Shown: positions 47,157-53,261 of the stretch, one piece after another
Layout: each line of letters starts with the position of its first letter
Position numbering within the stretch: position 1 is the first letter of the stretch
IMG/VR virus record: IMGVR_UViG_3300025137_000038
Location: 1 to 60,197 of that record
Source of the DNA: a virus
DNA: 60,197 nt
Strand: one strand, 5' to 3'
The notes under the pieces: model-generated
What the model was told of the DNA's origin: nothing
Databases searched by the model: none
Seen by the model: the letters and a program-made list of their open reading frames with translations, nothing else
Made by a program: the position numbers and the translations under genes

Positions 47157-49430
47157 TTAAGATGATAGTTTTATAATCTGCCCTGTTTGGCGGTTCATTT
47201 TCTTTAATTCTGCTACAACTTCAGTATTATCAGCACTTCCTGTTTGCATTTGTATTAGTTTTTCAACACTTTTCGTTAAGTCTGCTATTGGTTTTAAGTC
47301 AATATCAACTGGTACTTGACGCCCATTTGGTAGTGGAATAACTGCTTCATCACTAGCACCTTCACCAATCATACCCAACGTTGGTTGTCTAACAATACCG
47401 CCATCTTCAAATCCAAACTTATCTGCTAGCCATCCGCCTAATTTTTTACCACCTATGTCTCCACCAATACCACCTGCGATACCACCTATAATAGCACCAA
47501 TGGCTGTACCAACAAGAGGAACAACTGATCCTGCAATGGCTCCTGCCGCCGCACCAGCCGCCGCACCACTTAATGATCCAACACCTGCTCCAATACCTTC
47601 AGCCGCTACACCAACTCCGGTATCTTGGTCACTAGTCGCCGCCGCTATTCCACCTGATGCAAACGCACCAAGTATTGGAATCTTTTTAACTAAACTACCT
47701 GCAATTTTTGCCGCCGTACTGGCTCCACTAGCCGCAACACCTTTGGCTACGCCTGATGCCGCACTTGTGGCACCTGCTTTGGCTACATCATCTGCACTTT
47801 GTACGGCAATCTCACCTAATGTTTTTGCCGCCGTGTTTGCCGCTTTTGAGAATCCTAACGCGGCACCACCTGCCGCTGAAATATTTGTTTCTAATTTTTT
47901 TAATCCTTCTTTTGTCTCAGGTGACATATCTACACCGTCAACTAAATTTTTTAAATCTTGTACAATGGTTTTCATTGAACTAACTGCCGTTTGTGATACT
48001 GTGTTAATTCCTAGCCTTGTCATCTTACCAACGTCTTCAATCATCATTTGAGTTTGTTTAACAGTTTTAGTATCGTCAGCAACTTTAGGTACTAGTGACT
48101 TGCTATAAGCATCCATGTCGCCTTTAAATGTAGTACTAATAACTTTATACTGTTGATTAACTCCTTGTAGTGCTAACACACTGGCGTTCATTTGATCTGC
48201 TATTGGGCTAAATCCTTGTAAAGAACGCATTCCTTTAAATTGGCTATTTTGCGAATCATATATTGCACCCATTCTCTTAACAACATCTTCTGCTTTAACT
48301 GAACCATTTTGCATTTCCAGTCCAAGTTTGTTAAGTTCTTGTCCCATCGGACTCATCAATAACTGATTACCTTCAGCAGTTGCACCAACTGTAAGTCCTT
48401 GCATACCACGAAGTACAAGATCCATTGCACCTGGAACTTCGCCAAATTTGTTCTTCATTAATTCTAATGAAGCTCTTGTATCTGTGTTTCCTTTAACAGA
48501 CATTTCAGATAACATTAATTCAATGTTAGCCTCTTGTTTTTCTCTAGCCATTCTTTCTGCTAGAGCTTTTCTATCTTGTCCTGTTAATGTTGCAAGTTTT
48601 GTAATTTCTTCTGAGAAGTTTGCCGCCGCTAATGCCTGTTGATTTGCACTCATCGACGCAAATTGAGTATTACGTTGTTGCATTGTGATATATTCGCCTA
48701 ATAGTTCAGCACTTTCTTCAGCACTAATACCAAGCATTCTTAATTTATCACGTGATGTTTCATTCATTGCAACGTTAATTGCTACAAATCTTTTGGCACC
48801 AAGTGCCGCAGTACCACCAAAGACAGCCAAACTTGCTGAGTTTTCTCTGATAATTCCTGTAAACTGTTCTAAGCCTAGATAACTTTTTGCCGCGGCTGTT
48901 TCAATATCAAATAAACTGCCACTAAAGGTTGCACCACTTCTTGTTAATGCATCAAAACTATCTGCTAAATTTGCCGTGTGAGCAATAATGGCTCCACCTG
49001 CCGCCCCTAGGGCCGCTCCTGCGAATGGTATGGCATTACCTAATCTGTCAACTGCACTACCAACGTCTTTCATGTTTAAGCCGACGCCGGCTGTACTTGC
49101 TCCAAATTTTACAATATCTTCAGTAGCACCCATGACTTTATCAGCCATGTTTCCAAGTTTATTACCAAATCCACCGGCTTTATCAGCCGCATCATCTAAT
49201 TCTTCTGCTAAATCATCAGCACTTTTAGTAAGGCCTTTAAGTTCAACGTTGAGTTTTTTAGTGCTTTTTGCTTGTTTGTTAACTTGTGCTTGTGCATCTT
49301 TAAAGCCGACACCACCAGTGGATCCAGGAGATGAACTCTCCATTTTATCCACTAATCTCTTTAATGTGCCTTCTGTAGCAACATCATTTAGTGTGACTGT
49401 GTTATTGTCTATGTTTACTTCTACTGCCAT
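47157..49430 (-). CDS. Tail tape measure protein
   Basis: A 757-residue protein. The N-terminal 120 residues are helical (KLNVELKGLTKSADDLAEEL). The centre is a long helical region (about 130-560). Near the C-terminus there are two hydrophobic Gly/Ala stretches (PILGAFASGGIAAA; GAAAGAAAGAIAGSVVPLVG, about 580-690) and the tape-measure end motif GMIGEGASDEAVIPLPNG. Its length would predict a tail near 110 nm at 0.15 nm per residue, similar to T4 (inference). It lies head-to-head with the gp26-like frameshifted gene, recalling the chaperone/tape-measure neighbourhood of other tailed phages. No gp29 identity can be shown. Confidence 0.85.
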   Translation of the reverse strand: MAVEVNIDNNTVTLNDVATEGTLKRLVDKMESSSPGSTGGVGFKDAQAQVNKQAKSTKKLNVELKGLTKSADDLAEELDDAADKAGGFGNKLGNMADKVMGATEDIVKFGASTAGVGLNMKDVGSAVDRLGNAIPFAGAALGAAGGAIIAHTANLADSFDALTRSGATFSGSLFDIETAAAKSYLGLEQFTGIIRENSASLAVFGGTAALGAKRFVAINVAMNETSRDKLRMLGISAEESAELLGEYITMQQRNTQFASMSANQQALAAANFSEEITKLATLTGQDRKALAERMAREKQEANIELMLSEMSVKGNTDTRASLELMKNKFGEVPGAMDLVLRGMQGLTVGATAEGNQLLMSPMGQELNKLGLEMQNGSVKAEDVVKRMGAIYDSQNSQFKGMRSLQGFSPIADQMNASVLALQGVNQQYKVISTTFKGDMDAYSKSLVPKVADDTKTVKQTQMMIEDVGKMTRLGINTVSQTAVSSMKTIVQDLKNLVDGVDMSPETKEGLKKLETNISAAGGAALGFSKAANTAAKTLGEIAVQSADDVAKAGATSAASGVAKGVAASGASTAAKIAGSLVKKIPILGAFASGGIAAATSDQDTGVGVAAEGIGAGVGSLSGAAAGAAAGAIAGSVVPLVGTAIGAIIGGIAGGIGGDIGGKKLGGWLADKFGFEDGGIVRQPTLGMIGEGASDEAVIPLPNGRQVPVDIDLKPIADLTKSVEKLIQMQTGSADNTEVVAELKKMNRQTGQIIKLSS

Positions 49431-49440
49431 TATATACCCA

Positions 49441-49448
49441 GATAAATA
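49441..49448 (+). promoter_or_regulatory. Late promoter (GATAAATA) for the gp26-like gene
   Basis: GATAAATAACTATATATA on the plus strand, 56 nt before the ATG at 49505. It forms the left arm of a perfect inverted repeat. Confidence 0.6.
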
Positions 49449-49484
49449 ACTATATATACTTTATTTAAAAGTATGTTACATAGT

Positions 49485-49492
49485 TATTTATC
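49485..49492 (-). promoter_or_regulatory. Late promoter (GATAAATA) for the tape measure gene
   Basis: GATAAATAACTATG on the minus strand, 55 nt before the start at 49430. It forms the right arm of the inverted repeat. Confidence 0.6.
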
Positions 49493-49504
49493 GGAGTCAA
49501 AAAC

Positions 49505-50338
49505 ATGGAAAACAATCAAAACCCACTAGTAGGGTATTTTAGGAAACCAGAAGTTTATATTAGTCTTCCTTCAAAAGGCGACTTTTATGAACAGGGCGTT
49601 TTAGACTTGCCACCTAACAATGAAATTGGGATCTTCCCAATGACGGCTAGGGACGAGTTGGTACTTAAAACACCTGATGCATTACTTAATGGCGCTAGTA
49701 CCGTTGAAGTAATAAGAAGTTGTGTACCAGCAATCAGTGATCCTTGGAAAATACCAAGCCTGGATATGGATACTATATTAATAGGTATTCGTATTGCAAC
49801 ATACGGAGAAGAAATGGATATTACTATTACTTGTCCAAAGTGTGAAGAAAAAAATGAGTTTGCTATTAACCTAGGTGCTCTAATGGATCAAACAAAAAAA
49901 TGGAAGTTCGACGAAACCCTAGAAATAGGTGATATGAAAATTACATTTAGACCGTTAGAATATAAAGAAATGAATGCACAAAGTCTTCGTACATTTGAAG
50001 AAACAAAAATTATGAAAATAGTTAATGATGATCAAAGTGACGAAAATATGAAACGTGAAAAGTTTCAAGAAGCATTTCTAAAACTTACTGCACTAACAGT
50101 AGACCTTATTGGAAAAACAATTCACAAAATTGAAACTCCTGAAGGTATAGTTACTGATCGGAATCATATTTCCGAATTTGTACAAAACGTAGATAGAAAA
50201 ACATTCGCTGAAATTCAAAAGCATTTAGATTTACAAGGCGAAATTAATAAGTTTGAAAAGTTCGAAGGCAAATGTTCAAATTGTGAGAATCATTTAGAAA
50301 CTCCAATTATATTTGATAACGCAAGTTTTTTCGTATAA
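49505..50338 (+). CDS. gp26: gp26-like T4 baseplate/tail assembly protein, frame-0 product
   Basis: A 277-residue protein of the T4 baseplate (gp26) family: PEVYISLPSKGDFYEQG, IFPMTARDELVLKTPDALLNG, VIRSCVPAI, IGIRIATYGEEMDI and a CPKC knuckle, with a second CSNC knuckle near the end that probably completes a zinc site. T4 gp26 has 208 residues. The gene is divergent from the tape measure gene. Its 3' end carries a slippery heptamer three codons from the stop (50326-50332), with a stem-loop downstream, so a minority product should continue into the -1 frame to 50562. That behaviour is known for tail assembly chaperones (lambda G/GT), which suggests a chaperone role. Confidence 0.88.
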   Translation: MENNQNPLVGYFRKPEVYISLPSKGDFYEQGVLDLPPNNEIGIFPMTARDELVLKTPDALLNGASTVEVIRSCVPAISDPWKIPSLDMDTILIGIRIATYGEEMDITITCPKCEEKNEFAINLGALMDQTKKWKFDETLEIGDMKITFRPLEYKEMNAQSLRTFEETKIMKIVNDDQSDENMKREKFQEAFLKLTALTVDLIGKTIHKIETPEGIVTDRNHISEFVQNVDRKTFAEIQKHLDLQGEINKFEKFEGKCSNCENHLETPIIFDNASFFV

Positions 50339-50400
50339 GGCTTCTTAGTCTTAGCAATGAAGATATTGCGAAATTAGTCAGTGACTACGACAAAGAAGCC
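50326..50400 (+). promoter_or_regulatory. Programmed -1 ribosomal frameshift signal
   Basis: In frame 0 the heptamer T TTT TTC (50326-50332) fits the canonical X XXY YYZ rule. After a 6-nt spacer, GGCTTCTTAGTC (50339-50350) pairs with GACAAAGAAGCC (50389-50400): 11 of 12 bp with one A-A mismatch and a 38-nt loop. The frame-0 stop (50336-50338) lies in the spacer. All three elements are in the usual places. Confidence 0.85.
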
Positions 50401-50562
50401 CGAATTATAAAAAAAGAACTAGCAAGAATAGTATGGTATATGCGAGGTGGTATCACTTTGGATCAGGCATACAATTTGTCGAATAGTGACTCTAAACAAA
50501 TTTCAGAAATTATCGAAGAGAATATTAAGAACGTTAAAAAAACTGGACTACCGTTAATATAA
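50332..50562 (+). CDS. -1 frame extension of the gp26-like protein (gp26-x fusion C-terminus)
   Basis: This open frame has no usable start. In this frame a stop (TAA 50317-50319) lies just before the slippery site, and the first ATG is more than 100 nt inside. It encodes 76 residues after the shift: basic RIRLLSLSNEDIAKLVSD, then helical YDKEARIIKKELARIVWYM, RGGITLDQAYNLSNSD and a Lys/Glu-rich end. The coding quality and helical pattern argue for selection. Translation by -1 shift would give a 352-residue fusion. The helical add-on is comparable in placement to the T domain of lambda GT, which binds the tape measure (analogy, not homology). Confidence 0.8.
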   Translation, partial: RIRLLSLSNEDIAKLVSDYDKEARIIKKELARIVWYMRGGITLDQAYNLSNSDSKQISEIIEENIKNVKKTGLPLI

Positions 50563-51551: not shown

Positions 51552-51765
51552 TCTTCTTCCTATGTTTGTTTAACAATAACACCTTCTGGTGGTACTCGTC
51601 AATCTTTTTTTCTGCATAGAAAGGAAATAATGTTGGAACAATTCCATGTATGATGCTTATAATACCCGTAAGTATCAAATCCAAACCTGCCACTATAGCA
51701 AACTTGGTGTGTGCAAAATACGATTTTCCGGCTGTTCTTAAATGTGCCCTAATTGCCCTTATCAT
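51523..51765 (-). CDS. Small membrane protein, DUF6356-like
   Basis: An 80-residue protein with a basic N-terminus (MIRAIRAHLRTAGKSYFAHTKF), one or two membrane segments (AIVAGLDLILTGIISIIHGIVPTLFPF) and a basic tail. The layout RxHxxxAGxSYFxHxxFA...HxxxPxLF recalls small bacterial proteins of the DUF6356 type (from memory, not certain). It starts inside the end of the ANL gene (17-nt overlap) with an AAAGGGA ribosome site, so the two are coupled. Confidence 0.5.
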   Translation of the reverse strand: MIRAIRAHLRTAGKSYFAHTKFAIVAGLDLILTGIISIIHGIVPTLFPFYAEKKIDEYHQKVLLLNKHRKKNAKQTKSKR

Positions 51766-53080
51766 AGATTCCCTTTAATTTATTGATGTTCGGTTTACCC
51801 AGAACGTTCAGCTCTATTGGTGTAACTAATTTATCGTGTGTTATACCATTATCATCGAGTTTCTGAATCAACTGCGGAACTTCGAAGTCTTTGTGATGTA
51901 AAACCACTACAACGTGTGTCTGCGAAGTGCTGAATATACAACAGTAACCATTTAACGAATATGGTACAAGTTGTTGTGGATTAATAAGACTATCATCAAT
52001 TCTTATTAAATCACTGTTTCTTTTTTCAAAGTAAAACGTATTTCCGTCTGCACTTACTACATCTTGAGTTACAAATAAATCCACAGGCTTGTCGTTTATT
52101 GTTTGACATAAATGACTGCTACCTTTGATTGTAAGTATGTCTTCATCATCAACCGTATATTCGCCTGATTCGTCAATAATGTAACCCATCTCACTTTCGT
52201 TATATTCACTAAGGTTTTCTATATTAACAACCTTATGTATAACAGGAGGTAAACATTCAGTTAATCCGTAAATGACTGCAACGTTTTTAACTCCTTCATT
52301 CTTTATTAATCTCCTAACAAAATGTATAGGAATAGTACTACCACCAGTAAGTACCCAATTTACACAACTTAAATCTAAATATTGTAAACCTGGATAAGAT
52401 TCAAAGTGTGAAGGAAATATTAACATTATAGTAGGTTTATATTTCTCTATAAGCTCTTTGTCGTAACAATTTGCTAATGGTGGTAAAATAATCTTTTTGC
52501 TAGAAAACAATGCAGGAAAAAAGTAAACACTGCTTACACCCAGGTGTACAATGTTATGAAAAAACCAACTAGTGTTTTCTCCTTGCCAGTATTGTTTAAT
52601 ACTTTCTTGAGTAGCACTCCATATACTTTCATGAGTATGAGAAATACATTTAGGTACTCCTGTACTACCACTTGTTAATGCTTCTACTAAAATTTCTGAA
52701 TGATTAATAGTATATTTTTCATTAGACTCAACAACTTCTGCTTCAATATGATTAACATTAGTTGCAGTAACTTTACATGGTTGAATACCACGTGTAATAA
52801 ATGTTTTTATATTTCGTCTAGAGATATATTCGTTAGTAATATTGTGTTCGCCACTTATAACAATTATAAGTCCAAAGTCAATAGCCGCGAATACAGCCGC
52901 CAAGTGATGTGAATCTTCTTGCATAGCAAGACCAATTCTATCTCCTTTTACTAAGGCGGCTTCTCGGAACAGTTGTTGATACCCAGAAGCAAGACTCATT
53001 AATTGAGATTTACTTATCTGGGTATCATTTATACAATCAACTATTTCAAAATTATTAGATAATTTTGTAATAGAAATCAT
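51749..53080 (-). CDS. ANL-superfamily adenylate-forming enzyme (acyl-/aryl-CoA synthetase or adenylation domain type)
   Basis: 443 residues from the ATG at 53080, chosen because the longer in-frame version would run through the neighbouring small gene, which stops 4 nt before this ATG. Core motifs are TSGSTGVPK (136-144, P-loop-like A3), YGLTE (271-275, A5), a TQD aspartate (D340) for ribose binding, FEKRNSDLIRIDD (352-363, hinge) and a C-terminal LGKPNINKL matching the catalytic-lysine loop. Such enzymes activate a carboxylate as acyl-AMP and pass it to CoA or a carrier. No carrier domain or membrane segment is seen. It is somewhat short (usual 500-550). The substrate cannot be told from the sequence. 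Confidence 0.82.
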   Translation of the reverse strand: MISITKLSNNFEIVDCINDTQISKSQLMSLASGYQQLFREAALVKGDRIGLAMQEDSHHLAAVFAAIDFGLIIVISGEHNITNEYISRRNIKTFITRGIQPCKVTATNVNHIEAEVVESNEKYTINHSEILVEALTSGSTGVPKCISHTHESIWSATQESIKQYWQGENTSWFFHNIVHLGVSSVYFFPALFSSKKIILPPLANCYDKELIEKYKPTIMLIFPSHFESYPGLQYLDLSCVNWVLTGGSTIPIHFVRRLIKNEGVKNVAVIYGLTECLPPVIHKVVNIENLSEYNESEMGYIIDESGEYTVDDEDILTIKGSSHLCQTINDKPVDLFVTQDVVSADGNTFYFEKRNSDLIRIDDSLINPQQLVPYSLNGYCCIFSTSQTHVVVVLHHKDFEVPQLIQKLDDNGITHDKLVTPIELNVLGKPNINKLKGIYDKGN

Positions 53081-53084
53081 AAAT

Positions 53085-53261
53085 TTACATACTGTTCTTT
53101 TTTTCTTGGATCTCGGCTCTTCTTGCTTTCGCAAGTTTACCCATTTCACCTAAAGCCTTACGAGCTCTTGCCGCCGCGGCTTTTACGCCTTTGGTTTCAA
53201 ATGCTTCGTTTTCTTTAAGGTAGTTGTCGTAGTGTGCTACGATATCATCATGTATTGCCAT
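53085..53261 (-). CDS. Small basic Ala/Lys-rich protein, histone H1-like
   Basis: 58 residues from the ATG at 53261 (AGGAGA site; an upstream ATG would overlap gp46). The sequence MAIHDDIVAHYDNYLKENEA has an acidic start, then KGVKAAAARARKALGEMGKLAKARRAEI, an A/K/R-rich helix like histone H1 tails and phage or bacterial DNA-compaction peptides. It lies between the ANL gene and gp46. It is probably a DNA-binding or packaging-associated protein (inference). Confidence 0.55.
   Translation of the reverse strand: MAIHDDIVAHYDNYLKENEAFETKGVKAAAARARKALGEMGKLAKARRAEIQEKKNSM

What the first reader, a model, noticed from the sequence alone, without database searches (positions are those of the whole stretch)
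50326..50562. Probable programmed -1 frameshift extends the gp26-like protein by 76 residues
Three codons before the gp26-like stop lies T TTT TTC in the correct frame. Six bases later a stem begins (50339-50350 with 50389-50400, 11 of 12 bp). The -1 frame is closed just upstream (TAA 50317-50319) and open to 50560 with good coding character and no start codon for over 100 nt. So the extension can only be made by frameshifting. The gene sits head-to-head with the tape measure gene. Known tail assembly chaperones (lambda G/GT, P2 E/E') use exactly this device; I do not know of it being part of standard gp26 annotation in T4-type phages. It would link gp26 proteins to tail assembly chaperones.
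Basis: partly seen in the sequence, partly recalled or inferred. Interest (0 to 1): 0.9.

Follow-up and report, generated by a model that had tools for sequence, protein, structure and literature searches.

The report
Frameshifted gp26-type tail assembly chaperone
A phage gene labelled "baseplate hub gp26" carries a conserved ribosome-slipping signal that adds a hidden 76-residue tail, making it almost certainly the short/long pair of tail-length chaperones that other tailed phages use; the principle was already published for T4-type phages in 2022.

Summary
T TTT TTC lies in frame at 50326-50332, just before the gp26-like stop. An 11/12-bp stem begins 6 nt later, and the -1 frame stays open to TAA 50560-50562, giving a 352-aa product.

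In 59 related junctions (57 distinct; gp26 identity down to about 28-35%) the heptamer is invariant, and the -1 extension is intact wherever the contig reaches far enough. A stem anchored 4-7 nt downstream beats synonymous shuffles (p<0.05) in 42/59, against 4-8/59 at control positions.

The same device joins gp26 to "gp51" in cyanophages, KVP40 and HTVC008M, where gene order is tube-gp26-gp51-tape measure. T4 gp51 is itself a gp26 paralogue carrying this extension in frame. Aeh1's reportedly missing gp51 is this -1 frame.

Best reading: TAC-N/TAC-NC tail assembly chaperones (lambda G/GT-like). Not new in kind: Vladimirov, Gautam & Davidson (Virology 2022) identified the T4-like chaperone genes; I could cite that paper only second-hand.

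Possibly new here: the jumbo-type clade with its own extension family, a mobile stimulatory stem, and a chaperone gene divergent from the tape measure gene. No expression data.

The parts
49505..50338 (+). gp26-like gene; zero-frame product, proposed short chaperone TAC-N (277 aa)
   Evidence: PF12322 E 5e-21; PHROG 150 E 4e-22; homologues
50326..50332 (+). Slippery heptamer T TTT TTC in zero-frame phase X XXY YYZ
   Evidence: Sequence; invariant in 59 jumbo-type and 82 cyano/KVP40-type junctions
50336..50338 (+). Zero-frame stop TAA, one codon after the heptamer
50332..50562 (+). -1 frame extension of 76 aa plus stop; proposed C-terminal domain of the long chaperone TAC-NC
   Evidence: Open frame; conserved extension in relatives
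50339..50350 (+). 5' arm of the proposed stimulatory stem, 6 nt after the heptamer
   Evidence: 11/12 pairs with 50389-50400; p=0.003 against synonymous shuffles
50389..50400 (+). 3' arm of the stem
47157..49430 (-). Divergent tape measure protein gene, proposed client of the chaperones
   Evidence: PHROG 794 E 4e-11 and other tape measure PHROGs; a long divergent ORF at this place in 44/44 related loci
49436..49497 (.). Inverted repeat between the two divergent genes, with an ATAAATA (T4-late-promoter-like) motif in each arm
   Evidence: promoter role is inference

Best explanation
The gene encodes the phage's pair of tail assembly (tape-measure) chaperones. Most ribosomes stop at 50336-50338 and make the short 277-aa form (TAC-N, like lambda gpG). 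A minority slip back one base at T TTT TTC, helped by the stem 6 nt downstream, and make the 352-aa form (TAC-NC, like lambda gpGT). Following lambda, the common domain would coat the tape measure protein made from the divergent gene, and the -1-encoded helical domain would recruit tail tube subunits. In T4 the pair is encoded by two separate genes, 26 (short) and 51 (long, extension fused in frame). Shown by comparative sequence: slippery site, frame, extension, stem, the T4 gp26/gp51 relationship, and gene order in relatives. Inferred: that the frameshift occurs, its rate, and the binding roles.
For: Heptamer and extension kept in every junction examined in this clade; XacN1 and RAS14 have T TTT TTT. 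Stem 4-7 nt downstream significant in 42/59 against 4-8/59 for control positions and in 47/49 cyano/KVP40-type junctions. S-PM2, P-SSM2 and KVP40 join gp26 to annotated gp51 by the same site. PF12322 matches both T4 gp26 (8e-65) and gp51 (2e-53). HMM of cyano-type -1 extensions matches T4 gp51 residues 200-248 at 1.6e-6 (up to 2.4e-9 in other T4-type phages). Gene order tube-gp26-extension-tape measure in HTVC008M and SP-15, the position of lambda G/T and P2 E/E'. T4 gp26 and gp51 are listed as hub assembly chaperones, gp51 absent from the particle (PMC3004832). Prior identification of T4-like TAC genes is cited in PMC12846349.
Against: No expression, mass spectrometry or reporter data. No sequence similarity to lambda G/T or P2 E and no significant PDB fold match for the gp26 model. 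The tape measure gene is divergent, not downstream, in this clade. In some relatives a start codon at the junction allows reinitiation. A few junctions (L031, L083, L087, SCTP-2, XaC1, PBECO4) show no significant stem by my test. Older work placed T4 gp26 in the hub (PMC3004832).
Confidence: 0.9

Rival explanations
1. The extension is a separate small gene translated by coupling or reinitiation at the gp26 stop, as GenBank annotates 'gp51' in cyanophages, and the T-run is incidental.
For: Cyanophages have ATG just after the stop, KVP40 and PBECO4 have TAATG, Phosso has ATGA; some records call the downstream ORF separately.
Against: In the window the junction codons are ATA AGG and the first ATG/GTG/TTG is 108 nt into the domain; the heptamer is invariant and conservation of the extension begins at the FFR junction; Aeh1 has no start near the junction either. 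T4 gp51 carries both parts as one chain.
Confidence: 0.05
2. The two frames are joined by transcriptional slippage on the T-run rather than by ribosomal frameshifting.
For: T runs can promote polymerase slippage; some relatives have seven T's.
Against: The run keeps the exact in-phase X XXY YYZ form with C at the last position in 59/59 and 82/82 junctions, and an RNA stem is selected 4-7 nt downstream, which fits the ribosome.
Confidence: 0.04
3. The protein is a structural baseplate hub subunit as annotated, and the extension merely makes a variant hub protein.
For: The family name, and reports that the T4 hub contains gp26 (PMC3004832).
Against: Position next to the tape measure gene in distant lineages, the short/long pair architecture, and listing of T4 gp26 and gp51 as assembly chaperones.
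Confidence: 0.07

Closest known systems
T4-like tail assembly chaperones gp26/gp51 (TAC-N/TAC-NC; Vladimirov, Gautam & Davidson 2022, known here only through PMC12846349 and its title)
   Same: Same Pfam family PF12322; short and long forms; poly-T slippery site reported in TAC-N genes of T4-like phages
   Different: T4 itself uses two genes and no frameshift; the window clade has its own extension family and a divergent tape measure gene
Lambda gpG/gpGT
   Same: -1 frameshift near the end of the upstream gene makes a minor extended form; next to the tape measure gene
   Different: No detectable sequence similarity; lambda genes are co-directional with the tape measure gene
P2 E/E+E'
   Same: Annotated -1 frameshift pair just upstream of the tape measure gene
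   Different: No detectable similarity of E to the gp26 family; E' not tested
TAC locus of Pseudomonas phage Adele and relatives (PMC12846349)
   Same: Poly-T -1 frameshift site inferred by the same kind of comparative evidence
   Different: Reported motif GTTTTT; lies directly upstream of the tape measure gene; not compared with PF12322 here

Membership tests
Programmed -1 ribosomal frameshift site | X XXY YYZ heptamer in zero-frame phase | tested here: met
   T TTT TTC 50326-50332; conserved in 59/59 junctions
Programmed -1 ribosomal frameshift site | Downstream stimulatory RNA structure at a 5-9 nt spacer | tested here: met
   Spacer 6 stem, p=0.003 in the window; 42/59 in relatives
Programmed -1 ribosomal frameshift site | Conserved coding -1 frame | tested here: met
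Programmed -1 ribosomal frameshift site | Measured frameshift product | not testable with these tools
   Needs reporter assay or mass spectrometry
PF12322 gp26/gp51 family (T4-like TAC) | Sequence match to the family above its cut-off | tested here: met
   75.8 bits against 24.5
Tail assembly chaperone pair (functional class) | Short and extended forms from one gene, or an equivalent gene pair | tested here: met
   Fusion frame in the window; T4 gene pair 26/51
Tail assembly chaperone pair (functional class) | Gene adjacent to the tape measure gene | tested here: met
   Adjacent but divergent here; co-directional in HTVC008M and SP-15
Tail assembly chaperone pair (functional class) | Binds the tape measure protein, extension binds tube protein, absent from mature virion | not testable with these tools
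   Inferred from lambda; T4 gp51 reported absent from the particle (PMC3004832)
Lambda G/GT sequence family | Sequence similarity to lambda G or T | tested here: not met
   HMM hits E 28 or worse; it works like G/GT but is not filed in that sequence family

The most novel reading that the evidence does not exclude
In the jumbo-type clade the chaperone pair and its client tape measure protein are transcribed divergently from crossed, inverted-repeat late promoters. Short:long:tape-measure stoichiometry would then be set by promoter balance plus frameshifting rather than by operon order, with an extension domain family not previously recognised as part of a chaperone.
Probability: 0.3. Interest if true: 0.55.

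Novelty: new member of a known kind. Interest (0 to 1): 0.42.

Why it matters
It corrects the annotation of a protein labelled "baseplate hub" in more than a thousand phage records. It accounts for why cyanophage "gp51" looks about 80% truncated and why Aeh1 seemed to lack it (both noted in PMC3037559): the missing part is reached by a -1 frameshift from gp26. It makes tail-length control testable in jumbo phages. The central idea has prior art for T4-like phages, which is why the interest score is moderate.

Tried and rejected
Direct sequence link to lambda G/T and P2 E: none found; my P2 E' translation in that script was in the wrong frame, so E' was not tested. PDB fold match for the gp26 model: none at E<=0.001. 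PDB sequence search with gp26 profiles: only chance-level hits. NCBIfam: no match above cut-off. Independent-gene reading of the extension: judged unlikely for the window because no ATG/GTG/TTG lies within 108 nt. In-register base-pair covariation in the closest 11 sequences: the 7 core pairs do not vary, so that alignment is uninformative; the evidence for the stem comes from its recurrence with different 3' arms across groups. A T4 gp26 frameshift: rejected, since T4 gene 26 has no heptamer at its end and runs into gene 25. The Virology 2022 paper could not be opened.

Full report
Observation. The gp26-like ORF 49505-50338 (277 aa) ends GCA AGT TTT TTC GTA TAA, so T TTT TTC (50326-50332) is in the phase needed for a -1 shift. 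The -1 frame is closed at 50317-50319 and open to TAA 50560-50562. Its first ATG/GTG/TTG is at 50440; the shifted product would be 276 + 76 = 352 aa. The stem 50339-50350/50389-50400 (11/12 bp, spacer 6, loop 38) is as described.

Conservation. Eight loci at 73-74% gp26 identity all keep the heptamer and extension. A profile search gave 80 IMG/VR loci at 38-74% identity with 50 distinct junctions; every one has T TTT TTC in phase and the same type of -1 extension, even where the zero-frame stop has moved downstream; one locus is cut off by the contig end. Named jumbo phages keep it too: Phosso, Atu_ph07, RaK2, K64-1, PBECO4, MIJ3, GAP32, CBB, SCTP-2 and XaC1. XacN1 and RAS14 have T TTT TTT. 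Among Phe-Phe pairs elsewhere in the fetched loci only 4 of 92 are written T TTT TTC. The 59 junctions are not independent, but fall into roughly 31 groups at 65% ungapped nucleotide identity.

Stem. For each junction the best stem starting 4-7 nt after the heptamer was compared with synonymous-codon shuffles of the -1 frame: 42 of 59 have p<0.05, against 7, 4 and 8 of 59 when the arm is anchored at three control positions. The 3' arm lies at different distances in different groups (loops from 8 to 78 nt) while the 5' arm stays put. I read this as selection for a stem rather than for one inherited sequence. In the cyano/KVP40-type set 47 of 49 have p<0.05, though many of those sequences are closely related.

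What it is. PF12322 matches T4 gp26 and also T4 gp51, so the two are paralogues, head-to-head in T4. In S-PM2, P-SSM2 and KVP40, gp26 ends with in-phase T TTT TTC and the -1 frame enters the ORF annotated 'gp51'. HTVC008M, Cr30 and phiM12 have T TTT TTT; Aeh1 and phiW-14 have T TTT TTC. An HMM of these extensions matches T4 gp51 residues 200-248, beginning where the shift would occur. So the T4 group has short and long forms as two genes, and relatives appear to make them from one gene by frameshifting. PMC3037559 noted that cyanophage gp51 is only about 20% of full length and that Aeh1 lacks gp51; both follow from this. Gene order tube-gp26-gp51-tape measure (HTVC008M; SP-15; similar orders) is the place of lambda G/GT and P2 E/E'.

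Prior art. Full-text searches for frameshifting together with gp26 or the hub assembly catalyst found nothing relevant. [quoted passage not shown] I could not open that paper. I therefore treat the chaperone identity and T4-like frameshifting as already known and the window as a new member. That T4 uses two genes is my own comparison here and agrees with the paper's title.

Particular to this clade. The extension (FFR..RLL...WYMRGG...ENLETTKKSGLPFF type) is only weakly similar to the cyano type. The tape measure gene is divergent in the window, and a long divergent ORF sits at that position in 44/44 related loci; I did not run each of those ORFs against tape-measure profiles. ATAAATA-bearing inverted repeats lie between the genes in several of them. 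None of the GenBank records inspected in this clade joins the two frames.

Structure. AlphaFold models of the gp26-like protein (pLDDT 86) and a T4-type gp51 (pLDDT 82) match gp26/gp51 family members in BFVD, but the gp26 model has no significant PDB match.

Limits. All evidence is comparative. Frameshift efficiency, binding partners and absence from the virion are inferred from lambda and T4.

Noticed in passing
window 49436-49497: A 21-nt inverted repeat (86% complementary) with an ATAAATA motif in each arm lies between the divergent tape measure and chaperone genes. The motifs are placed so that the two leaders would overlap. Similar repeats in L004 and L008.
   Followed up: partly
L100 (Bacillus phage SP-15) and L101 (Streptomyces phage Alone3): gp26-family gene between tail tube and tape measure, with an extension-like ORF in the +1 (or -2) frame rather than -1; SP-15 has a T6C run at the junction but in another phase.
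   Followed up: partly
L236 (Salmonella phage Vi01): Extension-like ORF in the -1 frame but no canonical heptamer at the junction, so this lineage may use another route.
   Followed up: no
L233 (Aeromonas phage Aeh1): The gp51 described as missing in PMC3037559 is present as a -1 frame extension of gp26 after T TTT TTC, without a start codon at the junction.
   Followed up: yes
window 51749-53149 (-): AMP-binding enzyme (PF00501, E 8.5e-25) next to phage recombination genes, an unusual cargo for a phage.
   Followed up: no
BFVD hits A0A191ZCG4, J7KJQ2, A0A0K2QR08 and similar: Larger proteins (about 500-690 aa) of other large phages (Erwinia Special G, phiEaH2, Ralstonia RSF1) match the gp26 model; possible chaperones there.
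   Followed up: no
BFVD A0A0A0YVM8 (Citrobacter phage Moon): A 545-aa protein already named 'Tape measure chaperone' matches the T4-type gp51 model.
   Followed up: no
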